The position numbers and the translations under genes were made by a program. Positions 26,305 to 54,640 of a DNA stretch of 64,000 nucleotides are shown here, piece by piece. The stretch spans positions 2,832,501 through 2,896,500 of the forward strand of contig NZ_QHJE01000001.1 in assembly GCF_013626205.1 (NCBI RefSeq). The letters run 5' to 3'. The notes beneath the pieces were generated by a model. That model made no database searches, was not told the DNA's origin, and saw only the letters and a list, made by a program, of their open reading frames with translations. The stretch comes from Hyphomicrobium methylovorum (GTDB lineage Bacteria > Pseudomonadota > Alphaproteobacteria > Rhizobiales > Hyphomicrobiaceae). Positions within the stretch are counted from its first letter, which is position 1. Every line of letters begins with the position of its first letter.

Positions 26305-26322
26305 CTGTTCCGGCCGGAACAC
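26305..26322. promoter_or_regulatory. 18-bp palindromic operator candidate, site 1
   Basis: CTGTTCCGGCCGGAACAC, 93 bp upstream of the secreted-protein gene that leads into the DevC/DevA genes. It is near-perfectly symmetric. Same motif as sites 2-5. Confidence 0.7.
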
Positions 26323-26369
26323 GACTGCGAGGTGCGGAGAATTTTTATTTTTTTAATTAAAACAGGTAT

Positions 26370-27224
26370 TTATGCGGCCGCGGAGCGCGCGGTGGCGATG
26401 TCCGCGACGGGAGCGACGGCGGGTTCTCCGGTGAGCGCGCGTGCAAACCGATCGATCGCTTCGACAACGAGGTGGCGCTGCCGATCGATGGTTACGATGT
26501 GATAGCAGTCGTCCAGGATCTGCAGGTCGACCGGGCCTTTGATGCCGTCGCGCAGATAGGTGGCGTTGGTCATCCCAGCGTAGTCGTCTTCCAGCGGGTG
26601 CAGGATCAGCGACGGCTGGCGCACGAACGCGACGAGCTTCTTGGCAGCACTCACCATGCGGCGGTGTTCGAAGACGGCGCCGCCGGGCGTTGCGGGGTGG
26701 CCGCATTCAGCCGTGCCGGATGCCGTTCGGGCGCGGCGGATGAAGTCGCGGATGCGCTCGTCCTTGATGCCGTGCGGGTCGTGGTGGGGGAAGCGGAAGA
26801 GGTTCGCGAGCCACTTCTGGCGCACGAGCGGAAAGAGCCGCGCGTACCACGGGATCATCCAGCCGTTGAGCCAAAGCGTCGGCGCGAGAAGTGCAGTTGC
26901 GTCGACTTTATGCGGGTTTTTCGCTGCCAGCATCACGGCGAGTACGGCGCCTGCGGAAAGTCCCCCAGCGATGACGACATCGCATTCGCTTTTGAGATCA
27001 TCGAGCGCCTGTTGAGCGCTGCGGTACCAGTCAGTCCAGGTGGAGGCCGTCAATTCGGTGCCGGTGCCGCAGTGTCCGGCGAGCATCGGGCAGTGCACGG
27101 TGTAGCCTTGTTTCGCCAATCCGTTTGCGACGAAGCGCATCTCGACCGGTGTGCCGCAGAGCCGATGCAGCAACAGAATTCCGACTTTTCCGCCTTTGAT
27201 TTTGAAGCCCGTGTCGATTGCCAT
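26370..27224 (-). CDS. alpha/beta hydrolase (carboxylesterase/lipase-like)
   Basis: 284 aa. Nucleophile elbow GGLSAGAVLAV near 90-100 with the predicted catalytic Ser, acid in LEDDYAGMTN near 215, and His in DDCYHIVTIDRQ near 240. The layout resembles carboxylesterase Est30 and monoacylglycerol lipases. The oxyanion-loop segment reads LLHRLCGTPVEMR rather than the usual HGFTGSP, an unusual change. No signal peptide, so it is cytoplasmic. Member of the minus-strand exporter block; GAGGG precedes its ATG. It may act on a lipid linked to the exporter, which is inference. Confidence 0.85.
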   Translation of the reverse strand: MAIDTGFKIKGGKVGILLLHRLCGTPVEMRFVANGLAKQGYTVHCPMLAGHCGTGTELTASTWTDWYRSAQQALDDLKSECDVVIAGGLSAGAVLAVMLAAKNPHKVDATALLAPTLWLNGWMIPWYARLFPLVRQKWLANLFRFPHHDPHGIKDERIRDFIRRARTASGTAECGHPATPGGAVFEHRRMVSAAKKLVAFVRQPSLILHPLEDDYAGMTNATYLRDGIKGPVDLQILDDCYHIVTIDRQRHLVVEAIDRFARALTGEPAVAPVADIATARSAAA

Positions 27225-27307
27225 GATACCCTCGGATGCGTCTGATGACTGTGTTCGCGAGATTTATGCTGAGCGCTGGATTGCAGCAGTTCCGGCGGTG
27301 ACAGGCG

Positions 27308-27730
27308 TCAGGCGGCGGCTTGAAATGAGGTTTGCGGGAGGTGTGTGCGTTGCGACGGCGCCGTTGCCGCATCGATGGCGAGAAAGAGCCTATGCGCGCT
27401 GAAGCCGAAGCGCGTGTTGAGACGCTGTTCGGAAGCTGCGATCAGTGCCGCCGTCAGAACCTTGAAGCCGCGTTCCAACAGCAGGTTTCTGAGGCGGCGC
27501 GCGGCAAAAACGTGAAGCAAGGCGCGAAAGCGCAACGCAATCGGCAAACGCACTTCGGGTTGGTCTGCGAACGCATTCCAGATTTCGCTTTCGAGCGCAC
27601 GGATCTCGCTCTCCGTTAGCCCCGTGATGAGTGCGAGCCCATGTCCGCGCTGAATCAGAAGATCCATCGGCACTTTGAAATCCGCGGCGTTGACGGATGG
27701 GACATCGTCCAGATTGAATTGGGAAGGCAT
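27308..27730 (-). CDS. hypothetical protein
   Basis: 140 aa, not recognised. It has no signal peptide and is alpha-helical by composition: a segment MDLLIQRGHGLALITGLTES, then ALRFRALLHVFAARRLRNLL, then a Gly/Ala helix and a polar C-terminus. It starts 23 bp after the cold-shock-like gene in the same direction and should be cotranscribed with it. The gap to the hydrolase gene downstream is 83 bp. Confidence 0.65.
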   Translation of the reverse strand: MPSQFNLDDVPSVNAADFKVPMDLLIQRGHGLALITGLTESEIRALESEIWNAFADQPEVRLPIALRFRALLHVFAARRLRNLLLERGFKVLTAALIAASEQRLNTRFGFSAHRLFLAIDAATAPSQRTHLPQTSFQAAA

Positions 27731-27753
27731 GGTGCGTTTCCTCGCTTGTTGCC

Positions 27754-27972
27754 TTAAAGGCCGATGCCGCCGAATGCAGACCAGGGCGATCCGGCCAGCA
27801 CGATGATCTCGCGGGCTTTCAATTCGCCGAGTTCGAAATGAACTTCCTGGCCTTCGAGATCGCGCTGAGAATTGAGGATCGCCGTCTGCTCGAAGCGGTA
27901 ATCGCGTCCGTTTTCAGCAGCGATGATGCCGATGCCGAGATCGCCGCGGAATTTTTTGATTGCGCCGTACAT
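27754..27972 (-). CDS. small cold-shock-domain-like protein
   Basis: 72 aa. The opening MYGAIKKFRGDLGIGIIAAE and following YRFEQTAI have the spacing of the cold-shock fold (K.F....G.G.I....G.D..F...I), although the RNP1 aromatic residues are mostly missing. It may be a diverged OB-fold RNA-binding protein. Palindrome site 2 lies 74 bp upstream of its ATG, and a long hairpin (28134-28186) lies further upstream. GGAGAGACC precedes the ATG. Confidence 0.7.
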   Translation of the reverse strand: MYGAIKKFRGDLGIGIIAAENGRDYRFEQTAILNSQRDLEGQEVHFELGELKAREIIVLAGSPWSAFGGIGL

Positions 27973-28045
27973 GAGGTCTCTCCACTGCCAAGGTTGCGAT
28001 GAAATTCGTTTGTTGGCGGATCATGCGGAAGACGCGCGTTCGGCG

Positions 28046-28063
28046 CTGTTCCGGGAGAAACAC
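28046..28063. promoter_or_regulatory. 18-bp palindromic operator candidate, site 2
   Basis: CTGTTCCGGGAGAAACAC, 74 bp upstream of the cold-shock-like gene. One arm base differs from the consensus. Confidence 0.65.
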
Positions 28064-28133
28064 GACGCGAAGCGGGTGCAGAATTTTTGTGAGTTGGGGA
28101 GCTGCGCGCTGTTGGGTCGGCGCGGAAACGGTT

Positions 28134-28186
28134 GCGGGGAGGAAGACGGAAGGGGCCGCAATCCCCGTACCGTCTTGCCTCCCCGC
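28134..28186. other. long intergenic hairpin
   Basis: GCGGGGAGG (28134-28142) pairs with CCTCCCCGC (28178-28186), then AAGACGG with CCGTCTT with a one-base bulge, then an inner GGGG/CCCC. About 20 base pairs in all. No T-tract on either side, so not a standard terminator. Confidence 0.6.
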
Positions 28187-28308
28187 TCCAGGACCGGCAG
28201 CTGCTCCGCTAAGGAGGAAGCGTTACCGCCACTGGCCTGTTCGAACTTTCTATCGATGCTTTGCAAGCATCACGCGGCCGATGGGTTTCGGGAGATCGTC
28301 CGCTCCCG

Positions 28309-29391
28309 TCACTTGAAAAAAGCGTCGGCCCTCATGCCTGGCAGCAACGGCGGATTGCCTGAGAGATCGACGGTTACGGCGAGCACTTCGACATCCATCG
28401 GACGGCGCGCGCCGCGCAGTGCGAACTGTGGCGAGGTCAACGACGGTGCGAGTTCCGCGACAACGCCTTCGAATTCCTTGCCTGGATAGGCGTTGCTCTT
28501 CACGACGACCTTGCCGCCGAGTTTGATCTTCGAAACATCGATCTCGTCGACCTCGGCTTTCAGGCGGACGACTGACATATCGCCCAGCACCGCGAGGATT
28601 TGATCTGGCGAGGGCGCTACCATTTCACCGGCTTTCGCAGGAAGCTGAAGAATGGTTCCGGCGACCGGGGCACGAATGCGTGTTTTTTCCAGCAGAGCTT
28701 CTGCGACCTGCACATCCGAGCGTGCGGCTTGCAGCGCCGATTCAAGTCTGTTTGGCGCAGGAATGTCAGACTTGGCCTGTGCTGTGGCGTAAGACGAGCG
28801 TTCGTTCTGCAGCTTTTCCTTCGCGCGTTCGACATCCTGACGCGCATCGGCAACGCGGTCGGCGCTGCCTGTACCTTGGCGCTGGGCCTGCAGTTCGAAT
28901 TCAAGCGCGAAGCGAGCGTTCGTCAGAGCGCGTTCCGCGGAAAATACGTCGTCTTCTGCCTTGCGCAATTCATCGCGTGCGCGATCGAGGGGTTGTGCGT
29001 CGCGTTCGCGCTTACGGGATGCAACTTCTGTTTCGGCGGCCTGTAAGCGGGCGCGGGCCTCGTCATCGTCGAGGCGGATCAGCAGCTCGCCTTCCTCGAC
29101 CTTGTCGTTCAATTTGACGGTCACTTCAGAGATGCGGCCGAGCAGTGCCGCGCCAACGCGGACCAGGCCAGATTTCGGTTCGATGCGACCGGGGGCTGCG
29201 GCAACCCAGTCGATCCGTGCGGAAGCATTTTCGATTTTCAGACCGTCGCTCGCGTCGGCCTTCGACGTGAAGAGATCCGTCTTTGCAAGTTCGATCGTGC
29301 CCAACCCGCCGGCGCCTGCTGCGGCCACGACGACGAAGATCTTCGATAGCAAACGCCGCTTCGGGCGCTGGTTGTTTCCGTTGGTGCTCAT
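28309..29391 (-). CDS. HlyD/DevB-type periplasmic adaptor protein
   Basis: 360 aa. A short cytoplasmic N-terminus precedes one membrane helix (LLSKIFVVVAAAGAGGLGTI, about 13-32). A lipoyl-like barrel (RIDWVAAAPGRIEPKSG) flanks a long coiled coil (about residues 120-215, rich in E, R, A and Q) and then the TRIRAPVAGTILQLPAKAGE segment and beta-barrel. This is the DevB arrangement of a membrane fusion protein linking the ABC permease to an outer-membrane factor. AGGAGG precedes the ATG at 29391; an upstream in-frame extension has no such signal. Palindrome site 3 lies 86 bp upstream. Confidence 0.9.
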   Translation of the reverse strand: MSTNGNNQRPKRRLLSKIFVVVAAAGAGGLGTIELAKTDLFTSKADASDGLKIENASARIDWVAAAPGRIEPKSGLVRVGAALLGRISEVTVKLNDKVEEGELLIRLDDDEARARLQAAETEVASRKRERDAQPLDRARDELRKAEDDVFSAERALTNARFALEFELQAQRQGTGSADRVADARQDVERAKEKLQNERSSYATAQAKSDIPAPNRLESALQAARSDVQVAEALLEKTRIRAPVAGTILQLPAKAGEMVAPSPDQILAVLGDMSVVRLKAEVDEIDVSKIKLGGKVVVKSNAYPGKEFEGVVAELAPSLTSPQFALRGARRPMDVEVLAVTVDLSGNPPLLPGMRADAFFK

Positions 29392-29476
29392 GACAATCCT
29401 CCTTAAGAATTTCGAGCGAGTGGCCAGTCGTTTGCCTGGCCGACATGGGAGGTTTAGGGGAGGGCGAGGCAGCGCG

Positions 29477-29494
29477 CTGTTTCCGCGGGAACAG
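29477..29494. promoter_or_regulatory. 18-bp palindromic operator candidate, site 3
   Basis: CTGTTTCCGCGGGAACAG, 86 bp upstream of the HlyD-like gene. Arms CTGTT and AACAG are exact inverses. Confidence 0.7.
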
Positions 29495-29546
29495 GTGTCG
29501 TGCGTGTTGCGACGAGCGGAGAAACGCGGCTCGCAAACGAAAAAGG

Positions 29547-29573
29547 CTCCGGGGATGTCCGAAGCCTTTTGCG
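29547..29573 (-). terminator. Rho-independent terminator
   Basis: On the minus strand AAGGCTTCGG, a short loop and CCGGAGCCTTTTT form a stem with a T-run, 29 bp after the stop of the small secreted protein gene (29602-29874). It separates that gene from the HlyD transcript. Confidence 0.75.
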
Positions 29574-29601
29574 AATTCATTAGTCGAGTTTTTCTGCGGG
29601 C

Positions 29602-29874
29602 CTACTGGCACATCTCGCGGAGCGTCCAGCTCACGATCTTGCAGCTTTCGCCGCCGCCGGGTGTGCTCACGCACTTGCGGTTCGGCAGGCGCTGATAATC
29701 GCAGTAATAGTTGCCGGAATGGCCGGAATAGCCGTGCATCGGCTTGGCGAATTTGTAATCCTGAACGAACACTTCCTTGCCGCGTGCGTTCGCGGCATTA
29801 CCGGACAGGAGAGATGCGGTCGCGATCGCTGCGAGTGCGGCCGAGCGAAAAACAATGGTTCCGAAGTTCGTCAT
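29602..29874 (-). CDS. small secreted Cys-containing hypothetical protein
   Basis: 90 aa. A signal peptide (about residues 1-31, ending SGNAANARG) is followed by a Tyr/Gly/His-rich mature segment (YKFAKPMHGYSGHSGNYYCDY) and three more Cys (NRKCVSTP, ESCKIV, REMC). The four cysteines suggest two disulfides in the periplasm. Start at 29874 is used because it follows AGGAGGAAC and yields the signal peptide. Palindrome site 4 lies 81 bp upstream. Function unknown. Confidence 0.75.
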   Translation of the reverse strand: MTNFGTIVFRSAALAAIATASLLSGNAANARGKEVFVQDYKFAKPMHGYSGHSGNYYCDYQRLPNRKCVSTPGGGESCKIVSWTLREMCQ

Positions 29875-29954
29875 TGGAAGGTTCCTCCTTGATCGGGCGA
29901 TTGGCCCGGTGTTCATTTCCTGGAGGCTGGTGTACGGGGATTTTAAACCTGCCG

Positions 29955-29972
29955 CTGTTCCGGGTGGAACAC
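29955..29972. promoter_or_regulatory. 18-bp palindromic operator candidate, site 4
   Basis: CTGTTCCGGGTGGAACAC, in the divergent gap between the small secreted protein gene (81 bp from its start) and the glutathione peroxidase gene (50 bp from its start). It could act on both. Confidence 0.7.
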
Positions 29973-30021
29973 GATTTTCACGTGATGGCCTTTCGGATGC
30001 TCGCAGAAACGAGGAAGCAGA

Positions 30022-30615
30022 ATGCGCAACCTTTGGACCATGGCCGTTAGCCTGATCGCGATGTGGACTGCTGCTCCGAGCCTTGCGCCTTCCAAGTCGG
30101 TCCCCGGGTCGGCCTATGACTTTGAGTTCAAGGCGATTGACGGAAAGCCGATGAAGCTATCGGACTGGCGCGGTAAGGCGTTGCTGGTGGTCAATACAGC
30201 TTCATTCTGTGGGTTCACCAAGCAGTATGCCGGACTTCAGACGCTCTGGACGCGCTACGAAAAGGCGGGTCTGGTCGTCATCGGCGTGCCATCCAACGAC
30301 TTTGGCGAGCAGGAGCCGAAGTCGGAGGGGGAAATCAAAACGTTCTGTGAGGGCGCGTTCGGCGTGACGTTTCCGCTGACGTCGAAGGAGCATGTGATCG
30401 GGGAGGCTGCGCATCCCTTCTATAAATGGGTAGCGGAGGCGATGGGCCCTTCAGGCGTGCCCAACTGGAATTTTCACAAGTATCTCATTGGGCGCGACGG
30501 GCACCTCGTTCGCTCGTTTGCAACCAAGCTCGAGCCGACGTCCGAGGAATTGACGGGATGGATCGACAAGGCGCTGGCTGAACCAGCGCCTGCGTCTTCT
30601 GCTTTGCAGAACTGA
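30022..30615 (+). CDS. glutathione peroxidase family protein, probably exported
   Basis: 197-aa thiol peroxidase of the Gpx/BtuE family. The Cys form of the active site is in NTASFCGFTKQYAGLQ (about 58-73), with the conserved GVPSNDFGEQEP (about 94-105) carrying the Asn-Asp/Gln context, and WNFHKYLIGRDG (about 149-160). A hydrophobic N-terminus (MRNLWTMAVSLIAMWTAAPSLA) indicates export to the periplasm, unlike the usual cytoplasmic Gpx. GAGGAAG precedes the ATG. Reduces peroxides, with thioredoxin or glutathione as donor; which one is not readable. Confidence 0.92.
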   Translation: MRNLWTMAVSLIAMWTAAPSLAPSKSVPGSAYDFEFKAIDGKPMKLSDWRGKALLVVNTASFCGFTKQYAGLQTLWTRYEKAGLVVIGVPSNDFGEQEPKSEGEIKTFCEGAFGVTFPLTSKEHVIGEAAHPFYKWVAEAMGPSGVPNWNFHKYLIGRDGHLVRSFATKLEPTSEELTGWIDKALAEPAPASSALQN

Positions 30616-30646
30616 GACCGATCTCTCCGTGACGCGCTGAGGCGGC

Positions 30647-31513
30647 TTACTTCGCCGGGCCGGTTTCGATGGGCAAGCCGTTATCTTCCTGGCCCCACTC
30701 AGCCCAACTGCCATCGTAAACGGCCGCGTTGGTCTGTCCGAGGGTTGCAAGCGCGAGCGCTAGGATCGATGCGGTGACGCCCGATCCGCATGTCGTTGCG
30801 ACCGGGCGGGTCACGTCGATACCGGCGCTCTTGAAGATTTCGGCCAGTTCAGCAGTCGGTTTAAATGTGCCGTCGGCCTGCAGCAGAGATTGAGACGGAA
30901 CGCTGCGGGAGCCCGGAATGTGGCCACTGCGAAGGCCCGGGCGCGGTTCAGGCTCGGCGCCTTCGAAACGAGGTTTTGGGCGGGCGTCCACAATCTGCGC
31001 GCCAGGTTTCTTGAGCAGCGCTTTCATTTCGTCGAGGTCGCGAATGATTTCGGTGTTCTGGAGCGGAGAGTAGTGGCGCTCAGATCGGCGCGGGGCGGGG
31101 CCGTCTTCCAGCGGACGGCCCTCGGCCTTCCATTTTTTGAGGCCGCCGTTCAGGACGGCCACGTCGCGGTGGCCCATTGCGCGGAACGTCCACCAGACGC
31201 GCGCGGCCGAAAAGATGCCGGTCGAGTCGTAGACGACGATGCGTGCGCCGTCGCCGATGCCCATTTTCTTCATGCGGGAGGCGAACTTGACCGTCGACGG
31301 CAGCATGTGCGGCAGGGACGATTTTTCGTCCGAGAGATCTTCAATGTCGAAGAAGATGGCGCCGGGAATATGCTCTGCCAGATATTCCTTCTTCGCGTCG
31401 CGCCCGGCGTTCGGAAGGTGCCAACTGCCATCGAGAACGATGAGATCAGGGGAAGACAGGTGGCTTTCAAGCCAATCGGTTTCTACGATCCAATGCTGGG
31501 CATTCGTCGGCAA
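30647..31513 (-). CDS. sseA: 3-mercaptopyruvate sulfurtransferase
   Basis: Two rhodanese domains in about 288 aa. The second carries the active-site loop VATTCGSGVTASILALAL, with the CGSGVTA motif typical of mercaptopyruvate sulfurtransferase rather than thiosulfate sulfurtransferase. The first domain has the DSTGIFSAARVWWTFRAMGH segment. There is no ATG or GTG near the start of homology; the best start is TTG at 31513, with AGGGG just upstream, giving M-PTNAQHWIVETDWLE. Moves sulfur from 3-mercaptopyruvate to a thiol acceptor. Confidence 0.88.
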   Translation of the reverse strand: MPTNAQHWIVETDWLESHLSSPDLIVLDGSWHLPNAGRDAKKEYLAEHIPGAIFFDIEDLSDEKSSLPHMLPSTVKFASRMKKMGIGDGARIVVYDSTGIFSAARVWWTFRAMGHRDVAVLNGGLKKWKAEGRPLEDGPAPRRSERHYSPLQNTEIIRDLDEMKALLKKPGAQIVDARPKPRFEGAEPEPRPGLRSGHIPGSRSVPSQSLLQADGTFKPTAELAEIFKSAGIDVTRPVATTCGSGVTASILALALATLGQTNAAVYDGSWAEWGQEDNGLPIETGPAK

Positions 31514-31957
31514 AGCGTACCCCTGGGTTCTGGCTTGACGGTGGATTTTTCGGCCCCCTGCACATAGGCAAAAGGAGTGGAGGTCGCAAGCTGTTGAGCG
31601 CTCAGAGTTTTGACTTAGGCCGCAAATGACTGAAATGCTACATGGCGGGACATAGGCTGTATTTCTGGGGAAACCGGGGCTGACCCACGCATTTGCGCTT
31701 TTGGCCCTCCTCAGATTTCGGCTCCGGCCCGGCGGTATAGGGCAGGTTTGTGCCCGGGCGTGTCGGCGCGTCCATTTGGGTGGGCGCGGGCGGGGCGGTA
31801 AACCCAGGGAAGCGCCAGCGCGCTCGCCGAAGCGAGCGGTGTGCGGGAACGCGCCAAGCGTATCGTTAGCCCGCTGGAAATGATGGCCCGCTTGCCGCCC
31901 TTGCATAGGGTCAAAATCCATGTCAAACGCGGTGACAAATCCCCCGAGACTGGCTTA
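31514..31957. other. gene-free region between sseA and tRNA-Leu
   Basis: 444 bp. It should contain the sseA promoter (minus strand) and the tRNA-Leu promoter (plus strand), but I found no convincing -35/-10 pair. A small hairpin CGCTCGC-cgaa-GCGAGCG lies near 31823-31841. No protein-like reading frame. Confidence 0.5.
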
Positions 31958-32044
31958 GCGAGCGTGGCGGAATTGGTAGACGCACTCGGTTTAGGTCCGA
32001 GCGCTTTCAAAGGCTTAGGGGTTCGAGTCCCTTCGCTCGCACCA
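31958..32044 (+). tRNA. tRNA-Leu (anticodon TAG), CCA encoded
   Basis: 87 nt. Acceptor GCGAGCG pairs with CGCTCGC, D-loop AATTGGTAGA, anticodon stem CTCGG/CCGAG around TTTAGGT (anticodon TAG), long variable arm of a class II tRNA, T-arm GGGGTTCGAGTCCC, and the 3' CCA is in the DNA. Confidence 0.96.
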
Positions 32045-32218
32045 CTTTGCAAAGGATTTCGAAGCACGTGCGCAGGTTCGGGGGCGCAAGCCGTCGACCC
32101 GTGCCATTGGGGCGCGGCAAAGCGCAGTAGCAGCAACTAGACGGGTTTTAGCCCGGTCGTATCAGCTTATCTAAGAGGGGCGCCCGATTGTGGCGAGCCT
32201 CAAACCAGGAAACGGACG

Positions 32219-33580
32219 ATGCAGGTTACCGAGACGGCGAGAGACGGTTTGAAGCGCACCCTTCAGGTGGTGGTTGGACAAGCCGAGTTGAATGAGCGTT
32301 TCTCCGAACGTCTCGACGAAATGAAAGATCGCGTGCAGATCAAGGGCTTCCGTAAAGGCAAGGTTCCTGTCGCGCATCTGAAGAAACTCTACGGCAAGTC
32401 GCTGATGCAGGAAGTCATGGAGCAGACGCTCAATGACACCAGCGTGAAGGTGATCAAGGACCGCAATGAGCGTCCCGCGGCGCAGCCGAAGGTCGAACTC
32501 GTCGGCAACGACGATCGCGGCGCGTTCGAGCGTATCGTCAACGGTGAAGCCGATCTTGCCTACGAAATGTCTTTCGAAGTTTTGCCGCCGATCGAGGTCA
32601 CGGATCTCAAAGCGCTCAAGCTCGAAAAGCTGGTGACGGACGTCGAAGACTCGGCCGTCGAAAAAGCGTTGAATGATCTCGCTGATCGCAATACCGCGTA
32701 TGAGTCTGAAGAAGGCCGCGTTGCTGGCGAAGGCGACCTGGTGACGATGGATTTCGTCGGCCGTATCGATGGGGAAGCGTTCGAAGGCGGTTCGGGCGAA
32801 GGTGCGAGCCTCGTTATCGGCAAGAAGCAGTTCATTCCGGGTTTTGAGGAAGGCATCACCGGCCTCAAGGCAGGTGACGAGAAGGTCGTCGAGGCGACGT
32901 TCCCCGAAGATTATCCGATGCCAACGCTGGCTGGAAAAACGGCGCAGTTCGACGTGTCGGTGAAGGCTGTCGCGCTGCCGAAGAAGCCGGAAATCGACGA
33001 AGATTTCGCGAAGGGTCTTGGCGCCGAAAGCTTGGACCAGCTCAAAGGCTTCGTCAGCGAGCAGATCAAGCGGGAATACGATCAGGCGTCGCGCGCAAAG
33101 CTGAAGCGCGAGATCCTCGATGCGCTCGACAAGGCGCATACGTTCGAGCTGCCGCCGTCGCTCGTCGATTTCGAATTCAACAACATCTGGACGCAGCTTG
33201 AGAACAATCTGAAGGCTGCGAACAAGACGATTGCCGACGAAGATAAGTCCGAAGACGAACTTAAAGCCGAGTATCGCGGAATTGCCGAGCGTCGCGTGCG
33301 TCTTGGGCTCGTGATCGGTGAGATCGGCGAAAAGAATAAGCTGCAGGTCGCGGAAGACGAGATGCGCCGTGCGCTCGTGGAGCAGGCACGCCGTTATCCG
33401 GGCCGCGAAAAGCAGGTCTATGAATACTATGAGAAAACGCCGGGTGCGCTTGCTGAATTGCGCGCGCCGCTCTTCGAGGACAAAGTGATCGACTATGTCA
33501 TCTCGGAAGCAGCGCCGATTGAAAAGAAAGTATCGCGTGACGATCTACTGAAGGCAGTCGAAGAGGCAACGGGCGCCTAA
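32219..33580 (+). CDS. tig: trigger factor
   Basis: Ribosome-associated chaperone with peptidyl-prolyl isomerase activity, 453 aa. The ribosome-binding signature is in GFRKGKVPVAHLKKLYG (about residues 43-59). The FKBP-type middle domain runs about 150-245 (GDLVTMDFVGRIDGEAFEGG and FIPGFEEGITGLKAGDEK), and the C-terminal helical chaperone arm fills the rest. It leads the tig-clpP-clpX-lon-HU group, an order common in bacteria. Confidence 0.97.
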   Translation: MQVTETARDGLKRTLQVVVGQAELNERFSERLDEMKDRVQIKGFRKGKVPVAHLKKLYGKSLMQEVMEQTLNDTSVKVIKDRNERPAAQPKVELVGNDDRGAFERIVNGEADLAYEMSFEVLPPIEVTDLKALKLEKLVTDVEDSAVEKALNDLADRNTAYESEEGRVAGEGDLVTMDFVGRIDGEAFEGGSGEGASLVIGKKQFIPGFEEGITGLKAGDEKVVEATFPEDYPMPTLAGKTAQFDVSVKAVALPKKPEIDEDFAKGLGAESLDQLKGFVSEQIKREYDQASRAKLKREILDALDKAHTFELPPSLVDFEFNNIWTQLENNLKAANKTIADEDKSEDELKAEYRGIAERRVRLGLVIGEIGEKNKLQVAEDEMRRALVEQARRYPGREKQVYEYYEKTPGALAELRAPLFEDKVIDYVISEAAPIEKKVSRDDLLKAVEEATGA

Positions 33581-34694: not shown

Positions 34695-35945
<1,251 letters not shown>

Positions 35946-46217: not shown

Positions 46218-46219
46218 CG

Positions 46220-48122: not shown

Positions 48123-49355
48123 ATGACCGGCGGCTCTCGACTTTTGCAGGCGTTTGGCTGGGAGGCCGCGAGGCTGGGTTGTCATCCAAGGCGGCGACGA
48201 GCCGTTTTCGTTTTACCGGTGATCGTCACTTCGGCGCTGGGGCTCGCTGCGTGCGAAGAAAAGAACACGTTCGTTGCGCCGCCGCCTGCCAAGGTTGAGG
48301 TTGCCGTTCCCCTCAAGCAGACGGTTACGCGCTATCTCTTTGGGACGGGCAACACGCAGGCGATCAACAGCACGACCCTAGTGGCGCGCGTGCAAGGCTT
48401 CGTTCAAGCGATCAAATATCAGGACGGCGATACCGTCAAAGCCGGGCAAGTGCTGTTCGTGATTGAACAGAAGCCGTATCAGCTCGCTCTTGAGCAGGCG
48501 GAGGCGGGGCAATCGAGCGCTGCTGCTTCAACCAAGCAGATGCAGGCGGACTACGAGCGCCAAAAGGAGCTTGCGTCGAAGAATTATTCGAGCCAGTCGA
48601 CGCTGGATCAGGCGACGGCGGCGAAAGATGCGGCTGTTGCGAAGCAGAAGCAATCCGACGTCGATATCCAGCAGGCACAGCTCAATCTCGACTATACAGA
48701 GGTGAAAGCGCCGTTCGATGGCATCGTTTCCTCGCGCCAGGTTTCGATTGGGCAACTCGTCGGCGCGGGTAGTCCGACCACGTTGGCGACCATCGTTCAG
48801 GTCGATCCGATCTATGTGAACTTCGCCGTCAGCGAAGACGACGTGCAAAGTATCCGGGCCGCTGTGAAAGCCCGCGGCCTGACCAGCGAGGACTTGAAGA
48901 AAATTCCGATCGAAGTCGGCCTGCAGAGCGAGAGCGGGTATCCGCACGTCGGCAAGCTTGATTACGCAGCTCCGACGATCACGGCATCAACCGGAACGCT
49001 GATGGTTCGCGGTATTCTCGAAAACAACGACCATTCGCTGCTTCCGGGATATTTCGTTCGCGTTCGCGTACCGCGTGCTGAGGAGCCCAACCGGCTTCTG
49101 GTTCCCGATCGCATCGTGGGAAGCGATCAAAGTGGCCGATATGTGCTGGTAGTGAACAAGGACAATGTTGTCGAGCAGCGCAAGGTCGAGCTGGGACAGC
49201 AGCATGGAGATCTGCGCGTTATCGAGAAGGGACTTAACCCCGACGACCGCGTGCTCATTTCCGGTCTGATGACGACGGTTGCCGGACAGAAGATCGATCC
49301 GGTTGATAAGACGATCTCTGCCGCTGACGAAAACGAGGCGGGCCAAGCGCCATGA
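48123..49355 (+). CDS. RND efflux periplasmic adaptor (MexA/AcrA type)
   Basis: 410-aa membrane fusion protein. The N-terminus carries a long basic stretch and a hydrophobic segment (VFVLPVIVTSALGLAACEEK) with a Cys that may be a lipid anchor. Then a lipoyl domain (YLFGTGNTQAINSTTLVARVQGFV), a coiled coil (about 110-170, AEAGQSSAAASTKQMQADYE), YTEVKAPFDGIVSSRQVSIG, and the beta-barrel domain. Its stop overlaps the start of the RND pump gene (ATGA). ATG at 48123 starts the protein-like sequence. Confidence 0.92.
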   Translation: MTGGSRLLQAFGWEAARLGCHPRRRRAVFVLPVIVTSALGLAACEEKNTFVAPPPAKVEVAVPLKQTVTRYLFGTGNTQAINSTTLVARVQGFVQAIKYQDGDTVKAGQVLFVIEQKPYQLALEQAEAGQSSAAASTKQMQADYERQKELASKNYSSQSTLDQATAAKDAAVAKQKQSDVDIQQAQLNLDYTEVKAPFDGIVSSRQVSIGQLVGAGSPTTLATIVQVDPIYVNFAVSEDDVQSIRAAVKARGLTSEDLKKIPIEVGLQSESGYPHVGKLDYAAPTITASTGTLMVRGILENNDHSLLPGYFVRVRVPRAEEPNRLLVPDRIVGSDQSGRYVLVVNKDNVVEQRKVELGQQHGDLRVIEKGLNPDDRVLISGLMTTVAGQKIDPVDKTISAADENEAGQAP

Positions 49356-52300
49356 TCTCGAAATTCTTCATCGAACGGCCAGTCCTTGCCAACGTCATCG
49401 CGATCCTGATGGTCGTGATCGGAGCAGTTTCGGTCTACGGGCTTCCCGTCGCTCAGTATCCTGAAGTGGTGCCGCCCACGGTTCAGGTGACGACGCGGTA
49501 TCCGGGCGCGAGCGCGCGCACCGTCATCGACACCGTCGCGCTGCCGATCGAGCAGCAGGTGAACGGCGTCGAACGGATGCTCTATATGCAGTCCTTCGCC
49601 GCGGCGGACGGCAGCTATTCGCTGACGGTGACATTCGACATCGGAACGGACCTCAACGCAGCGCAGGTGCTGGTGCAGAACCGCGTTTCGGCGGCGATGG
49701 CCGGGTTGCCGCAATCCGTGCAGGTTCAGGGCGTCGTCGTACAGAAAAAGTCGACGTCTATTCTGGAGATCGTGACGCTGACGTCGCCGGATTCTCGGTA
49801 CGACAGTCTCTATCTCAGTAACTACGCGTCAATTCGGTTGAAGGATGAGATCGCGCGGCTTCCGGGCGTCGGCAACGTCAACGTTTTCGGTGCCGGTCAG
49901 TATGCGATGCGCGTGTGGCTCGATCCGGAAAAGATGCAGGCGCGCAACCTGAATACGCAGGACGTGATTCAGGCGCTGCAGCAGCAAAACGAGCAGGTGA
50001 CGGCCGGACAGATCGGCATGCCGCCAGCGCCGAGCACGCAATCGTTCCAATACACGGTGGAAGTGTCGAGCCGCTTCGACGATCCGGAACAGTTCGGCAA
50101 TGTCGTCGTGAAGACGGGCGCGTCAGGTGATCTCACGCGCGTCAAAGACATCGGCCGCGTCGAACTCGGTGCGCAGACGTATGGGCAGGTGTTCCGCCTG
50201 AACGGACAGCCCGCGGCGGGCCTTGCGATTTTCCAGACGCCCGGAGCGAACGCACTTGCGGTCGCGGATCTGGTGAAGAAAAAAATGGAAGCTCTTTCGA
50301 AAGAGTTTCCGGAAGGCGTCGTCTATACCATTCCGTTCGATACGACGATCTTCGTCAATCAGGCGATTTGGGAAGTCTACAAAACGCTATTTGAAGCGGC
50401 GTTTCTGGTTTTGATCGTCATCCTGGTCTTCCTGCAGGATTGGCGCGCCATGCTCGTGCCCGCGACGACCGTGCCCGTCACGATCATCGGTGCGTTTGCG
50501 GCCATGGCGGCGATGGGCTTCTCCGTCAATCTGTCGACGCTGTTCGCTATCGTGCTTGCTATCGGCATCGTGGTGGACGACGCGATCGTCGTTGTCGAAG
50601 GTGCGGCGCATAATATTGAAAAGGGCATGTCGGGCCACGATGCTGCGATCAGCGCGATGAACGCGTTGATGGGTCCGATTATCGGCATCACTCTGGTGCT
50701 GATGGCGGTTTTCCTTCCGGCGGCCTTCCTGCCGGGATTGACCGGAAAAATGTATGCGCAGTTCGCGCTCGTCATCGCGGCCACCGCGCTTCTCAGCGCA
50801 ATCAACGCGGCCACGCTGAAGCCCACGCAGTGTGCGCTCTGGCTACGGCGTCCCGTGCCGCCTGAAGATCGCAACTTTTTCTTTCGCGGCTTCAACGCCG
50901 TCTATGCGCGCCTCGAGAATGGGTACATCCGTTTCATCGACTGGATGGTGCATCGGAGCGTGCTGATGACGCTGGTAGCTCTCGCGATTGCCGGTGGCTC
51001 GATCTATGGCATGACGCGCGTTGCGACTGGATTCCTGCCGATCGAGGATCAGGGATATATGCTTGCAGCGGTGCAGTTGCCGGACGGCGCGGCGCTGGGG
51101 CGTACGCAAGCCTCGCTTGAAAAGGTCAACGAGATCGCGAAAGACGTGCCCGGGGTTGATCGTGTCATTACGATTGCGGGCATCTCGCCGCTCGACAACA
51201 GTTCATCGCTTGCGAACGCGGGCGTTGCCTACGTGATGCTCAAGGATTGGAGCGAGCGTGGCCCGGGGCAAGATCTTGCCTCGCTCTATAAGCTGCTCAA
51301 CGAGAAGCTATCTGTGATCGAGGACGGCACCGTTATGGTGCTTCCGCCGCCACCGATACAGGGCATTGGAAACGCGGGCGGCTTCTCGCTTCAGGTTGAG
51401 CTGCGCGACGGAAGTTTCGATCTTGGTAAGCTTGGAAGTTCCGCTCATTCGCTTGTGGACGCGGCGGAAGGGCAGTCAGGCATTCAGCGCATCTCGACGA
51501 CGTTCCGTGCTTCCGCTCCGCAATACAGGATCGAGATCGATCGCGAAAAGATTCAGACGCTTCTGCTGACGACGGATCAGGTGTTCCAGACGCTCGCGAG
51601 CTATTTCGGTTCGACCTACGTCAATCAGTTCAACAAATTCGGCCGGGTGTTTCAGGTTTATGTGCAGGGCGACGAGAAGTTCCGCATGACGCCTAACGAC
51701 ATCCTCACGCTCAAGGTGCGAAACCAAAACGGCGATATGATCCCGCTCGGCACGGTGCTGACGATTACGCCGAGCGTCGGTCCGTCGCTAATCAGCCTCT
51801 ACAATCTTTATCCATCCGCAACAGTGGTCGGTATGCCAGCGAAGGGCTTTTCGTCTGGCGATGCCATGAGCCTGCTCGACCAGACCGCAGCGCATACGTT
51901 GCCGCCGGGTGTTGGCTCGTCTTGGACGGCGTTGTCGTATCAGGAGATGATTGTCGGAGGGCAGATCTACTTCGTGTTCGCCCTGGCGATGCTGCTCGTT
52001 TATCTCGTGCTCGCTGGACAATACGAGAGCTGGTACACGCCGATCTCGGTGTTGCTCGCGGTGCCGCTGTCACTCATTGGGCCAGTCACCGTGATGAAGG
52101 GGCTCGGCATCGACAACAATCTTTATGTGCAGATTGGTCTGGTGCTGCTGATTGCGCTTTCGGCGAAGAACGCAATTCTGATTGTCGAAGTTGCGCGTGA
52201 ACTCCGTGCCGAGGGTAAGGCTATCGTCGACGCGGCGAGAGAAGCGGCGCGCGCGCGGTTCCGGCCGATCCTGATGACGTCGTTCGCGTTCATCCTGGGC

Positions 52301-52510
52301 GTTGCGCCACTCGTGATGGCGACGGGCGCTGGTGCTTCGGCCCGGAAATCGATCGGCATCACCGTGTTCAGCGGCATGATCGCGTCGACGCTTCTTGCGG
52401 TTCTGTTCGTGCCGTCGCTGTTCGCGATCGTGCAGCGGTTCGAAGAATGGCGCGCCGGCAAGAAAGGCAAGCCGACAGCGGCAAGCACACCTGCGCCGCT
52501 CCAAAGCTAA
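49352..52510 (+). CDS. RND multidrug efflux transporter (HAE-1 type inner-membrane pump)
   Basis: 1052-aa AcrB/MexB-like proton-driven drug exporter. Start MISKFFIERPVLANVIAILMVVIGAVSVYGLPVAQYPEVVPPTVQV is characteristic. Further markers are the TM4 ASN/ASP motif IGIVVDDAIVVVEGA (about 410), TLKPTQCALWLRR, and the C-terminal helices VLLIALSAKNAILIVEVA (about 928) and PILMTSFAFILGVAPLV. Twelve transmembrane segments, two large periplasmic loops. No outer-membrane TolC-type gene adjoins, so it probably uses a shared one. Confidence 0.94.
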   Translation: MISKFFIERPVLANVIAILMVVIGAVSVYGLPVAQYPEVVPPTVQVTTRYPGASARTVIDTVALPIEQQVNGVERMLYMQSFAAADGSYSLTVTFDIGTDLNAAQVLVQNRVSAAMAGLPQSVQVQGVVVQKKSTSILEIVTLTSPDSRYDSLYLSNYASIRLKDEIARLPGVGNVNVFGAGQYAMRVWLDPEKMQARNLNTQDVIQALQQQNEQVTAGQIGMPPAPSTQSFQYTVEVSSRFDDPEQFGNVVVKTGASGDLTRVKDIGRVELGAQTYGQVFRLNGQPAAGLAIFQTPGANALAVADLVKKKMEALSKEFPEGVVYTIPFDTTIFVNQAIWEVYKTLFEAAFLVLIVILVFLQDWRAMLVPATTVPVTIIGAFAAMAAMGFSVNLSTLFAIVLAIGIVVDDAIVVVEGAAHNIEKGMSGHDAAISAMNALMGPIIGITLVLMAVFLPAAFLPGLTGKMYAQFALVIAATALLSAINAATLKPTQCALWLRRPVPPEDRNFFFRGFNAVYARLENGYIRFIDWMVHRSVLMTLVALAIAGGSIYGMTRVATGFLPIEDQGYMLAAVQLPDGAALGRTQASLEKVNEIAKDVPGVDRVITIAGISPLDNSSSLANAGVAYVMLKDWSERGPGQDLASLYKLLNEKLSVIEDGTVMVLPPPPIQGIGNAGGFSLQVELRDGSFDLGKLGSSAHSLVDAAEGQSGIQRISTTFRASAPQYRIEIDREKIQTLLLTTDQVFQTLASYFGSTYVNQFNKFGRVFQVYVQGDEKFRMTPNDILTLKVRNQNGDMIPLGTVLTITPSVGPSLISLYNLYPSATVVGMPAKGFSSGDAMSLLDQTAAHTLPPGVGSSWTALSYQEMIVGGQIYFVFALAMLLVYLVLAGQYESWYTPISVLLAVPLSLIGPVTVMKGLGIDNNLYVQIGLVLLIALSAKNAILIVEVARELRAEGKAIVDAAREAARARFRPILMTSFAFILGVAPLVMATGAGASARKSIGITVFSGMIASTLLAVLFVPSLFAIVQRFEEWRAGKKGKPTAASTPAPLQS

Positions 52511-52562
52511 CGCGCGCCAACGATACACGCGCGAAGATGCTCGCGCGAAGATACAGGCATAA

Positions 52563-52598
52563 AAAAACCGGCGGAGCAGATAGCTGCTTCGCCGGTTT
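52563..52598. terminator. bidirectional Rho-independent terminator
   Basis: AAAACCGGCG (52563-52572) and CGCCGGTTTT (52589-52598) with inner AGCAG/CTGCT. Minus strand has seven T after the stem, plus strand four. Serves the convergent RND pump and grxD genes. Confidence 0.88.
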
Positions 52599-52616
52599 TG
52601 AATTTGGTGCGCCGGA

Positions 52617-52958
52617 TCAGGCGTGATGATGGCTATGCGGAATGCCCTTGTCGCAGATGAGATCGTGCAACTCGCCTGCCTGGTACATTTCACGCATGAT
52701 ATCGCAACCGCCGACGAATTCGCCCTTCACGTAGAGCTGCGGCACGGTCGGCCAGTTGGAAAAGTCTTTGATGCCTTGGCGGATCGAAGCGTCCTCAAGA
52801 ACGTCGACATCCTTGAAGGCGACGCCGAGGTGTTCGAGGATCTTTACGGCCGTCGCGGAAAAGCCGCACTGCGGAAACTGCTTCGTGCCCTTCATGAAAA
52901 GCACGACGTCATTGGCGGCAATCGTCTCGGCAATTTTTGCTTGAGTAGGGTCGGTCAT
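52617..52958 (-). CDS. grxD: monothiol glutaredoxin (Grx4 type)
   Basis: 113-aa CGFS-type glutaredoxin. The active-site motif is FMKGTKQFPQCGFSATAV (about 21-38), then WPTVPQLYVKGEFVGGCDI (about 69-87), which binds glutathione. CGFS glutaredoxins pair with BolA proteins to handle iron-sulfur clusters, and a bolA-like gene lies 74 bp upstream in the same direction. The His-rich tail SHHHA is notable. Start at 52958 fits the family. Confidence 0.95.
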   Translation of the reverse strand: MTDPTQAKIAETIAANDVVLFMKGTKQFPQCGFSATAVKILEHLGVAFKDVDVLEDASIRQGIKDFSNWPTVPQLYVKGEFVGGCDIMREMYQAGELHDLICDKGIPHSHHHA

Positions 52959-53031
52959 ACCGGATGTTCCTTTGCGCGGGAGCGGCCCGCGCTCCATTCA
53001 ATTCCGAAATGTGGTTAGTCGCGGTGCGAAG

Positions 53032-53262
53032 TCAATCGGCTGCGGTGGTGAGCTGCAGGGCGTGCAAAACACCGCCAACGCGGCCGCCGAGTGCGTCATA
53101 GACCATCTGGTGCTGCTGCACGCGGCTCTTGCCCTTGAAGGAGGGCGAGATCACGTGGGCGGCCCAATGATCGTTGTCGCCCGCAAGGTCCTTCAATTGA
53201 ACAATTGCGTCAGGAAGGCTGGCCTTAATAAGGCGTTCAATTTCGGTTGCGGGCATCGGCAT
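53032..53262 (-). CDS. bolA: BolA family protein
   Basis: 76 aa. BolA landmarks: IERLIKASLPDAIVQLKDLAGDNDHWAAHVISPSFKGKSRVQQHQMVYDAL, including the His and the KSRVQQHQ loop that contact the iron-sulfur cluster with Grx. Followed by grxD, so a BolA-Grx operon. Expected to act in cytoplasmic cluster transfer or iron sensing. Confidence 0.93.
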   Translation of the reverse strand: MPMPATEIERLIKASLPDAIVQLKDLAGDNDHWAAHVISPSFKGKSRVQQHQMVYDALGGRVGGVLHALQLTTAAD

Positions 53263-53458
53263 TCAAGTCGGCTCCTGGAAGTTGCCATTTGCTTGGAATT
53301 TAGAGTGATTTTATCACCCGATCGATCAGGCGAAGCAAGGTATCGGATCAGTATTTCTGATGACTCTCTCACGCGATTGCGATTGGACGTTATCGTCGCG
53401 CGTCACTACATTAGCTATAGGGAACGAACGTTCCTGGAAATGTCTAATGGAGGACACC

Positions 53459-53548
53459 ATGAAGACCTGGACCAAGCCCGCAGTTCGCGAGCAGGAAGTC
53501 GGCCTCGAAGTTACTTCGTATCTGCCGGCTGAGATCGACCTCATCTAA
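53459..53548 (+). CDS. pqqA: pyrroloquinoline quinone precursor peptide PqqA
   Basis: 29-residue peptide MKTWTKPAVREQEVGLEVTS then YLPAEIDLI. The invariant Glu and Tyr that are joined to build the cofactor lie in EVTSY, three residues apart (Glu17, Tyr21), as in known PqqA. The N-terminal MKTWTKP resembles methylotroph PqqA. GGAGG lies 6 bp before the ATG. A terminator follows at once. pqqB-E are not in this window, so it is an orphan copy. Confidence 0.88.
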   Translation: MKTWTKPAVREQEVGLEVTSYLPAEIDLI

Positions 53549-53573
53549 GTCGATCGACTGACTTTTTCTAGAG

Positions 53574-53613
53574 CGCGACGGCTGGGATTTTCCAGCCGTC
53601 GCGTTTTTATTTT
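53574..53613 (+). terminator. Rho-independent terminator after pqqA
   Basis: CGCGACGGCTGG (53574-53585) pairs perfectly with CCAGCCGTCGCG (53592-53603), followed by TTTTTATTTT. Confidence 0.9.
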
Positions 53614-53648
53614 GAGACGCCCGCCCAGCTCATTTGGGCGGGCGTCTC
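53614..53648. other. second perfect hairpin after the pqqA terminator
   Basis: GAGACGCCCGCCCA pairs with TGGGCGGGCGTCTC over 14 bp with a 7-nt loop. No clean T-tract. It may block read-through towards the convergent DUF2147 gene. Confidence 0.6.
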
Positions 53649-53733
53649 GTTTGCGCCAAGGACGGGGGGAGGCCGTGGCGCTAAGCGAGCGGAGGGAACG
53701 CCCGCATTCGGTTGCGTCTGTTCGCGAGGTTTC

Positions 53734-54549
53734 TCAGCGATCGCAGTCGAGCGTTACTTTCACCCACGGAAGGTCGAGCTTGCATTTGCCCGACTTGGTT
53801 TTGGTGATGACCTTGCCAAGGCCCAATCCGTTAAGAGCCTCGGCGATGTCGGGCCCGTTGTCTTCCGCTGATGCGGTTTCCTGATTGGACTCTTCGGTAG
53901 ATGCAGCTTCCTCATGGGTTGATACGGGCGGCGTCGATGCTTCGCTGCTCGGCGCGGCCAACTTCGTATTGTCGTTTGGCGCTGGGTTCGTCACGACTGG
54001 AGGGTTTGCTGTGGTTGGGACGCTCGGCGTTTCGGCAGCAGGGGCGTTCGATGCTGACGGCGCGACGCTCGCGACTGACGAACTCGGCTCTGGCGCCGGT
54101 TGAGGCGTCGCCGTTGGAGCTGCCTTTGCTTCCACGGCATCGCAGCGCTCGAGGTTATCCGGCGCGCGCTTCCAGACCATGGTCTTGGACAGGAACCTCA
54201 TGCCTGCATAACCGGTGACGCGAAGTGTTCCGTTGGCCAGTGGTGTGATCTCGACATTGTAGCGGCGGCCGCGTTCTGGCGAATAGATCCAGCCGTTGTC
54301 CCATCGTCCGCCGCCGACAGAGGCGACGTTGCCGATGATCTGTTTGCCGCAACCTTTGCTGTCGGATGTGTCTTTCACCCAGACGACGTGACCGCAAAGC
54401 GTGTCGCCGCATTTCTTGATTTCAACGGCGCCGCGTCCGGTGTCGTTCAGCCAGATTCCGATTGGGTCGTTTGCAGCAGCTGCGCCGGTTATACCGGCTG
54501 GCAACAAGGCGACTGCACATGCGGATGCGATTAACTTCATTCCGCTCAT
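53734..54549 (-). CDS. DUF2147 domain secreted protein with low-complexity tail
   Basis: 271 aa. Signal peptide to about residue 26 (ending ITGAAAA), DUF2147 domain at about 27-120 (PIGIWLNDTGRGAVEIKKCG, GRWDNGWIYSPERGRRYNVEIT, LRVTGYAGMRFLSKTMVWKR), then a long Pro/Ala/Ser/Thr and acidic linker (about 130-225) and a C-terminal segment with KCKLDLPWVKVTLDCDR. Palindrome site 5 lies 74 bp upstream of the start. AAGGAG precedes the ATG. Function of DUF2147 is unknown. Confidence 0.85.
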   Translation of the reverse strand: MSGMKLIASACAVALLPAGITGAAAANDPIGIWLNDTGRGAVEIKKCGDTLCGHVVWVKDTSDSKGCGKQIIGNVASVGGGRWDNGWIYSPERGRRYNVEITPLANGTLRVTGYAGMRFLSKTMVWKRAPDNLERCDAVEAKAAPTATPQPAPEPSSSVASVAPSASNAPAAETPSVPTTANPPVVTNPAPNDNTKLAAPSSEASTPPVSTHEEAASTEESNQETASAEDNGPDIAEALNGLGLGKVITKTKSGKCKLDLPWVKVTLDCDR

Positions 54550-54622
54550 GACCTGCTCCTTCGTGAAAAAAAAATCTGGCTGAAAACTCTGGGCTCCTTA
54601 AAGCGGTTTTTCGCGGCCGTAA

Positions 54623-54640
54623 CTGTTCCGCATGGAACAG
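54623..54640. promoter_or_regulatory. 18-bp palindromic operator candidate, site 5
   Basis: CTGTTCCGCATGGAACAG, 74 bp upstream of the DUF2147 gene and 24 kb from the other four. The outer arms are exactly symmetric. Confidence 0.7.

What the first reader, a model, noticed from the sequence alone, without database searches (positions are those of the whole stretch)
26305..54640. Five-copy 18-bp palindrome: a candidate undescribed regulon
The same inverted repeat occurs at 26305-26322, 28046-28063, 29477-29494, 29955-29972 and 54623-54640. Read on the minus strand, the gene-coding strand for all five, the consensus is STGTTYCNNSSGRAACAG, with AACAG invariant at the gene-proximal end. Distances from the site to the start codon are 93, 74, 86, 81 and 74 bp, a narrow range expected for a promoter-bound factor. 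The five genes are the secreted protein that leads into devC-devA, a cold-shock-like protein, the HlyD-like adaptor, a small secreted Cys protein and a DUF2147 secreted protein. Almost all concern the envelope. I do not recognise the regulator. Symmetry implies a dimer.
Basis: partly seen in the sequence, partly recalled or inferred. Interest (0 to 1): 0.85.

Follow-up and report, generated by a model that had tools for sequence, protein, structure and literature searches.

The report
cAMP-receptor (Clr-type) envelope regulon
The five repeated palindromes are real gene switches that match the known binding site of Clr, a cyclic-AMP-responsive regulator of rhizobia; here, in Hyphomicrobium, they appear to switch on exported and cell-envelope genes.

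Summary
The five palindromes are real, at the stated coordinates, and far beyond chance. The motif is enriched upstream of genes across Hyphomicrobium and much of its family. It is not an unknown motif: TGTTYCNNNNGRAACA falls inside the published consensus of Sinorhizobium meliloti Clr (HGTYHCNNNNGRWACA), a cAMP/cGMP-responsive Crp-Fnr "cluster G" regulator. The genome encodes one close Clr relative (46% identity over 192 aa) that keeps five of the six DNA-contacting residues listed for Clr. Its gene lies 39 bp upstream of a MASE7 adenylate cyclase gene. Orthologues in relatives that lack a strict site carry one that still fits the Clr core. In two other genera clr sits beside orthologues of the window's hydrolase, DevC, DevA and DUF2147 genes. 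In about half of promoter-placed sites a -10-like YANNNT lies at one fixed distance, putting the palindrome centre near -41.5. That is class II activator geometry; no -35 consensus is present at the window sites. Most likely this is a cAMP-Clr-activated regulon of exported proteins and a DevBCA-like exporter. Binding, activation and cAMP dependence are inferred, not shown. The kind is known; the regulon in this family was not found in print in four searches.

The parts
26305..26322 (-). Clr-type site 1, GTGTTCCGGCCGGAACAG, 92 bp before the secreted-protein gene that leads into devC-devA
   Evidence: -10-like CATTCT at the expected place
26279..26284 (-). -10-like CATTCT at positions 38-43 counted from the first T of TGTT
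   Evidence: offset rule
28046..28063 (-). Clr-type site 2, GTGTTTCTCCCGGAACAG, 73 bp before the cold-shock-like gene
   Evidence: -10-like CATGAT
28020..28025 (-). -10-like CATGAT
29477..29494 (-). Clr-type site 3, CTGTTCCCGCGGAAACAG, 85 bp before the HlyD/DevB-like adaptor gene
   Evidence: TAAACC at the -10 place, only partly fitting
29955..29972 (-). Clr-type site 4, GTGTTCCACCCGGAACAG, 80 bp before the small secreted Cys protein; also 49 bp from the divergent glutathione peroxidase gene
   Evidence: TACACC at the -10 place, only partly fitting
54623..54640 (-). Clr-type site 5, CTGTTCCATGCGGAACAG, 73 bp before the DUF2147 gene
   Evidence: TTTAAG at the -10 place does not fit YANNNT
23644..24384 (-). 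DevA-like ABC ATPase
   Evidence: best NCBIfam model TIGR02982 DevA, E 3.9e-68, below its cut-off
24406..25620 (-). DevC-like permease
   Evidence: best NCBIfam model TIGR01185 devC, E 2.2e-40, below cut-off; Pfam MacB_PCD/FtsX
25694..26212 (-). secreted protein (MTKIAIALAALLAG...; secretion judged by eye), target of site 1
   Evidence: no Pfam or NCBIfam family; orthologue site in 5 of 5 genus genomes viewed
26370..27224 (-). alpha/beta hydrolase; in genus g41 its orthologues carry their own site just downstream of clr
27308..27730 (-). 140-aa protein of unknown family between the cold-shock-like gene and the hydrolase
27754..27972 (-).
   Evidence: no Pfam or NCBIfam match; orthologue sites
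28309..29391 (-). HlyD-type periplasmic adaptor, target of site 3
   Evidence: Pfam HlyD families; NCBIfam best EmrA/EmrK model 8.1e-28, DevB model second at 1.3e-23, both below cut-off; orthologue site in 5 of 5 genus genomes viewed
29602..29874 (-). small secreted Cys protein (by eye), target of site 4
53734..54549 (-). DUF2147 protein, target of site 5
   Evidence: Pfam PF09917, E 6.6e-21; orthologue sites in G008, G018, G028, G033, G062, G078, G081, G082

Best explanation
The palindromes are operators of a Clr-type Crp-Fnr (cluster G) dimer, encoded in this genome at G000:C1:2200186-2200926(-), outside the window and just upstream of a MASE7-type class III adenylate cyclase gene. When cAMP (perhaps cGMP) rises, the dimer binds TGTTYCNNNNGRAACA centred about 41.5 bp upstream of the transcription start, overlapping the place of a missing -35 box. 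There it recruits RNA polymerase as a class II activator, switching on exported and envelope proteins, among them a DevBCA-like exporter. Shown by sequence: the sites, their conservation, the preferred fixed spacing to a -10-like element, the Clr relative and its DNA-contacting residues, and the clr linkage to the cluster in other genera. Inferred: binding, activation (rather than repression), the cyclic nucleotide ligand, and the start site.
For: (1) All 5 sites fit the published Clr consensus HGTYHCNNNNGRWACA and its core GTNNCNNNNGNNAC (passages of PMC10127613 and PMC5498481). (2) G000 protein L090:2184-2927(-): best PDB match is Clr 7pza at 5.2e-50, next best 2.2e-28. Of six G000 Crp-family proteins compared it is the only close one: 46% identity, E 3e-58, next 1e-7. 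(3) Of the six residues that section 10 of PMC10127613 lists as contacting the site, Q184, S194, R195, K197 and N199 are identical in G000; L152 is I. The stretch ASR[PQ]K[VI]N holds in 56 of 56 family loci read. (4) Orthologues lacking a strict site carry one with 1 mismatch (11 tests) or 2 (1 test) that fits the Clr core in 12 of 12 tests (11 distinct sites); 4 are TGTCYC, which is HGTYHC. In 1200 shuffles 2 reached that 1-mismatch score and 22 reached the 2-mismatch score. (5) clr lies next to orthologues of the window's hydrolase, DevC, DevA and DUF2147 in G078, G081, G082 and G034. (6) YANNNT occurs at position 38 in 48 of 93 promoter-placed sites (41 of 82 dereplicated, 13 of 38 one per protein family) against a mean of 1.9 (1.7, 0.64) per offset. 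(7) Presence profile: directional motif in 78 of 87 family genomes with clr (E<=1e-40; one of the 78, G023, is a parS copy) and 3 of 16 without, p 2e-8; among genomes at least 90% complete 64 of 70 against 3 of 9, p 2e-4. The alternative Crp gives 69 of 81 against 12 of 22, p 0.006. (8) Both genomes whose Clr reads ASRQKVN (G065, G023) show only parS or near-parS copies among the listed matches: 2 of 2, and 19 listed of 22.
Against: No binding, expression or start-site data. Only 2 of the 5 window sites have a full YANNNT at position 38; two have YA only, and the DUF2147 one does not fit. Nine clr-positive genomes lack the directional motif, and all nine Clr proteins keep the contacting residues (P196 reads Q in G065). 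Three clr-negative genomes (G080, G102, G103) have 1-3 motifs. No strict site lies near clr in G000 or in the clr loci of G018, G008, G001, G007, G091 and G028 looked at, so own-gene control is not seen there. R200 is A in the G000 protein, though R200 does not touch DNA in the Clr crystal. The genomes are related, so the p-values overstate independence.
Confidence: 0.87

Rival explanations
1. The same Clr-type protein binds but represses, by covering the -35 region.
For: The sites overlap the expected -35 position, which is compatible with repression too.
Against: In about half of the sites the spacing to the -10-like element is fixed to the base, and the -35 place reads CAGCGN or CAGTTA in the five window sites, not TTGACA, as expected for activator dependence. 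S. meliloti Clr mainly activates, and for most of its activated promoters the site lies at -42 to -76 (passages).
Confidence: 0.08
2. A different Crp-family or other dimeric regulator binds. One candidate is the second Crp-type protein (G000:C1:740153-740869), whose relatives in G028 and G091 have a site upstream.
For: Sites face that gene in L047 and L149.
Against: These two sites form one orthologous spot that also fits an EcfG promoter, GGAAC-N16-CGTT (the EcfG consensus is recalled). The protein is undetected at E<=1e-10 in several motif-bearing genomes, e.g. G002, G009, G034, G071, G081, and its profile fits worse. It lacks the Clr recognition stretch.
Confidence: 0.04
3. The palindromes are degenerate ParB parS sites (TGTTTCACGTGAAACA shares the arms; the parS consensus is recalled).
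For: Arms are identical, and parS-like copies occur in relatives, e.g. many in G023.
Against: None of the five has the ACGT centre. The sites sit in a narrow range upstream of genes with a preferred -10 distance, not scattered.
Confidence: 0.01

Closest known systems
Clr regulon of Sinorhizobium meliloti (Crp-Fnr cluster G; PMC10127613, PMC5498481)
   Same: Binding palindrome (all five sites fit HGTYHCNNNNGRWACA), a close relative of the regulator with five of six listed DNA-contacting residues, activator-type placement, adenylate cyclases as the likely signal source
   Different: Here the arms are stricter (TGTTYC/GRAACA) with a directional GCG at the gene side, about half of the sites share one class II distance, and the targets seen are largely exported, envelope or unknown proteins including a DevBCA-like exporter. 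No published link to Hyphomicrobium was found
E. coli CRP/CAP class II promoters (recalled)
   Same: 16-bp palindrome with two half-sites 6 bp apart, dimer, centre at -41.5 (recalled)
   Different: Half-site TGTTC instead of TGTGA (recalled); E181 is not conserved in Clr, nor in G000, where P stands
ParB parS sites (consensus recalled)
   Same: Identical TGTTTC/GAAACA arms
   Different: No ACGT core in the five sites; promoter-placed

Membership tests
Clr (cluster G Crp-Fnr) regulon | Site matches HGTYHCNNNNGRWACA | tested here: met
   5 of 5 window sites (against the consensus)
Clr (cluster G Crp-Fnr) regulon | Genome encodes a Clr relative | tested here: met
   PDB best hit Clr 5.2e-50; 46% identity, only close one of six Crp-family proteins compared. 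No tree was built
Clr (cluster G Crp-Fnr) regulon | DNA-contacting residues Q184, S194, R195, K197, N199 | tested here: met
   All five identical in G000; ASR[PQ]K[VI]N in 56 of 56 loci
Clr (cluster G Crp-Fnr) regulon | Loop residue L152 bonded to DNA | tested here: not met
   Aligned residue is I, a conservative change
Clr (cluster G Crp-Fnr) regulon | Site in class I/II activator position (-42 to -76 for most activated S. meliloti promoters) | tested here: inconclusive
   About -41.5 inferred from the -10-like element at a fixed offset in about half of the sites; start sites not mapped
Clr (cluster G Crp-Fnr) regulon | Activation by cAMP or cGMP | not testable with these tools
   cNMP-binding domain present, cyclase gene adjacent; no assay
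Clr (cluster G Crp-Fnr) regulon | Direct binding to these sites | not testable with these tools
   Needs EMSA, DAP-seq or ChIP-seq
EcfG (general stress) promoters | GGAAC-N15..18-CGTT (consensus recalled) | tested here: not met
   Only one match in the window, at 63072, none at the five sites
ParB parS | TGTTYCACGTGRAACA with ACGT centre (recalled) | tested here: not met
   No exact match in the window; two of the five sites match with 2 mismatches
DevBCA exporter | DevB, DevC, DevA above curated model cut-offs | tested here: not met
   DevA, DevC and DevB models match at 3.9e-68, 2.2e-40 and 1.3e-23, all below their cut-offs; the adaptor's best model is EmrA/EmrK: DevBCA-like only

The most novel reading that the evidence does not exclude
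In Hyphomicrobiaceae, Clr began as the local, cAMP-driven switch of one envelope/export cluster (HlyD, DevC-DevA, hydrolase, secreted proteins, DUF2147), beside which it is still encoded in two genera. It then moved away in Hyphomicrobium while keeping a class II promoter grammar: TGTTYCN4GRAACAGCG with 21 bases between palindrome and -10. It would tie a cyclase signal to surface and export remodelling in these bacteria, which bud from prosthecae (recalled).
Probability: 0.45. Interest if true: 0.5.

Novelty: new member of a known kind. Interest (0 to 1): 0.45.

Why it matters
It gives a regulator, a likely signal and a promoter rule to a set of largely unannotated exported proteins in Hyphomicrobium and relatives. 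I found no regulon for cAMP signalling in this genus in the held library. It also carries the Clr motif beyond rhizobia and shows the regulator linked to its targets in other genera, so the function of clr outside symbiosis becomes directly testable.

Tried and rejected
EcfG promoter: GGAAC is present but no CGTT at the right spacing at the five sites. parS: the arms fit, the core does not. LexA, NifA, GlpR and other palindromes were considered from memory and dropped on spacing or context, without a test. RNA element: none at the sites, Rfam found 3 elsewhere. Second Crp-family protein as regulator: looked promising from L047/L149, but those two sites are one orthologous spot that also fits EcfG, and the profile is worse. 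Unflanked pattern across the family: 97 of 103 genomes match, partly because it also catches parS (the list of places is capped, so e.g. the 18 hits of G035 were not seen and not classed), so the GCG-flanked pattern was used for the profile. Spacer control with N5: 5 hits in 22 Hyphomicrobium genomes against 117 for N4; reversed control 18. The home-made gene caller misses some genes (e.g. the window's DUF2147), so 'outside called genes' is approximate. Six sites were dropped before the 49-site alignment (two in genes, one parS, three without a gene start within 270 bp). L008, G000's coding hit, was left out of the 127 sites. Sites are a chosen part of the capped list. The orthologue loci were mostly fetched because they hold a site, which favours those counts.
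Full report
Observation. All five palindromes are at the stated coordinates. The window pattern search found 7 matches with up to 2 mismatches against 0.57 expected; the two extra ones lie in called genes. Read on the minus strand, all five are [GC]TGTTYCNNNNGRAACAG and end 73-92 bp before a start codon.

Genome and relatives. The window lies in a 3.45-Mb genome (G000:C1:2832501-2896500). A same-genus genome (G001) has a contig of the same length as, and a clr position consistent with, Hyphomicrobium facile DSM 1565, so the genus is Hyphomicrobium. In G000 the strict 16-mer occurs 10 times, reversed control 2. Five are in this window. Four are elsewhere upstream of genes: a FecR-domain protein and a DUF3307 protein (Pfam), and, named by eye only, a His-rich secreted protein and a TetR-like gene ahead of RND-type genes, the last with its called start 200 bp away. 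One is inside a gene. In the 22 Hyphomicrobium genomes STGTTYCN4GRAACAS occurs 117 times, against 18 for the reversed pattern and 5 for a 5-base spacer. All 21 same-genus relatives and 11 of 14 other family members have it, though the single hit of one of these (G023) is a parS copy; 24 genomes of other families hold 12 hits in all, control 24. The directional form TGTTYCN4GRAACAGCG occurs 241 times in 103 family genomes, control 10.

Position. Of 127 sites in fetched loci, 3 are inside called genes, although called genes cover 80% of those loci. G000's own coding hit, L008, was left out of that count. Among 49 sites fetched with the symmetric pattern (six dropped, see Tried and rejected) the gene-proximal end is more conserved than the distal end: G 45 of 49 against C 31 of 49, followed by C in 38 and G in 28. 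Among 93 sites with a start 40-135 bp downstream, YANNNT occurs at position 38 in 48, against a mean of 1.9 per offset. The figures are 41 of 82 after dereplication and 13 of 38 with one per protein family. If that is the -10 hexamer (-12 to -7), the palindrome centre lies at -41.5. The -35 place reads CAGCGN in four of the five window sites and CAGTTA in the fifth. This is class II activator geometry, known from CRP (recalled). In the window two of five sites fit YANNNT fully, two fit YA only, and one does not fit.

The regulator. The layout TGTTC-N6-GAACA led me to recall S. meliloti Clr. Passages in two papers confirm the consensus HGTYHCNNNNGRWACA, and all five sites fit it. G000 has nine HTH_Crp_2 hits; three were judged by eye not to be Crp proteins. 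One, C1:2200186-2200926(-), has Clr (7pza) as best PDB match at 5.2e-50 against 2.2e-28 for the next. Of the six Crp-family proteins compared it alone is close to Clr (46%, E 3e-58; next 1e-7). Six residues are listed as contacting the site in the Clr crystal (section 10 of PMC10127613). Q184, S194, R195, K197 and N199 are identical in G000 and L152 is I; R200, which does not touch DNA there, is A. ASR[PQ]K[VI]N holds in 56 of 56 family loci read. The gene is followed 39 bp downstream by a MASE7-Guanylate_cyc cyclase.

Three links. First, conservation under the Clr rule. In G008, G018, G007, G001 and G019 the HlyD and secreted-protein genes carry strict sites in 5 of 5. The 72-aa (cold-shock-like) gene has a strict site in 1 of 5 and the Cys protein in 2 of 5. 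In all 7 remaining cases, and in 5 further tests in other genera (12 tests, 11 distinct sites), the best upstream match has 1 mismatch (11 tests) or 2 (1 test) to the strict motif but fits GTNNCNNNNGNNAC. In 1200 shuffles 2 reached the 1-mismatch score and 22 the 2-mismatch score. Four are TGTCTC or TGTCCC, inside HGTYHC. Second, linkage: in G078, G081, G082 and G034 clr lies beside a run of hydrolase, a secreted protein, DevC, DevA and DUF2147. The hydrolase, DevC, DevA and DUF2147 are orthologues of the window's genes by tblastn; the secreted protein stands at the same place but was not matched at 1e-5. In the window DUF2147 lies about 30 kb from the rest. Third, presence: 78 of 87 clr-bearing family genomes have the directional motif (77 without the parS copy of G023) against 3 of 16 without clr (p 2e-8; 64 of 70 against 3 of 9, p 2e-4, among genomes at least 90% complete). 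The second Crp protein gives 69 of 81 against 12 of 22. The genomes are not independent.

A small extra. Two genomes have Q for P196 in the recognition stretch (G065, G023). Their listed unflanked matches, 2 of 2 and 19 of 22, are all parS or one base from it, as if the Clr sites were gone. Both are of one genus, so this may be one event.

Results against. Nine clr-bearing genomes lack the directional motif; all nine Clr proteins were read and keep the contacting residues, with P196 reading Q in G065. Three clr-lacking genomes have it. No strict site is found at clr in G000 or in six other clr loci looked at. Nothing here measures binding or expression.

Function. Window targets: a HlyD-type adaptor (best model EmrA/EmrK, DevB second), a secreted protein leading into DevC- and DevA-like genes (all models below cut-off), a small secreted Cys protein, a 72-aa protein and DUF2147. 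Elsewhere in the family the genes behind sites include an RTX-repeat protein, FecR-domain proteins, TPR proteins, a metallo-hydrolase, an acyltransferase and many small proteins that look secreted by eye. The reading is a cAMP-responsive envelope and export regulon.

Novelty. The motif and regulator kind are known. Paper searches for Hyphomicrobium with Clr (17 listed, none on this by title), with regulon and cAMP receptor protein (0), with cyclic AMP and cyclase (1, on another subject by title), and for Clr with Crp-Fnr and alphaproteobacteria (0) found no account of this regulon (listings only). Of PMC10127613 I saw passages and section 10; of PMC5498481 passages.

Noticed in passing
window 59063-59122 (-): terC RNA (RF03067) match, 60.4 bits, above gathering score.
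   Followed up: no
L049 6055-6094 (G031): Two palindromes 22 bp apart (about two helical turns) upstream of a protein with RTX calcium-binding repeats, nine matched stretches.
   Followed up: partly
L047 and L149 (G028, G091): Sites between a second Crp-family gene and a PRC-barrel-type gene (named by eye) also fit an EcfG promoter GGAAC-N16-CGTT, so one sequence may serve both systems.
   Followed up: partly
G023:C62:25834-32879: Eight parS-like TGTTTCACGTGAAACA within about 7 kb and others on further contigs; parS fits the Clr consensus, so ParB and Clr could share DNA.
   Followed up: no
L275 (G065) and L285 (G023): Clr recognition stretch reads ASRQKVN instead of ASRPKVN, in two genomes whose listed motif matches are only parS or near-parS.
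   Followed up: partly
all site sets: Directional GCG extension at the gene-proximal end of the palindrome, beyond the symmetric part; cause unknown, perhaps polymerase contact.
   Followed up: partly
L154 (G001) 2548: A second protein related to the window's MTKI secreted protein also has its own site, suggesting a duplicated target family.
   Followed up: no
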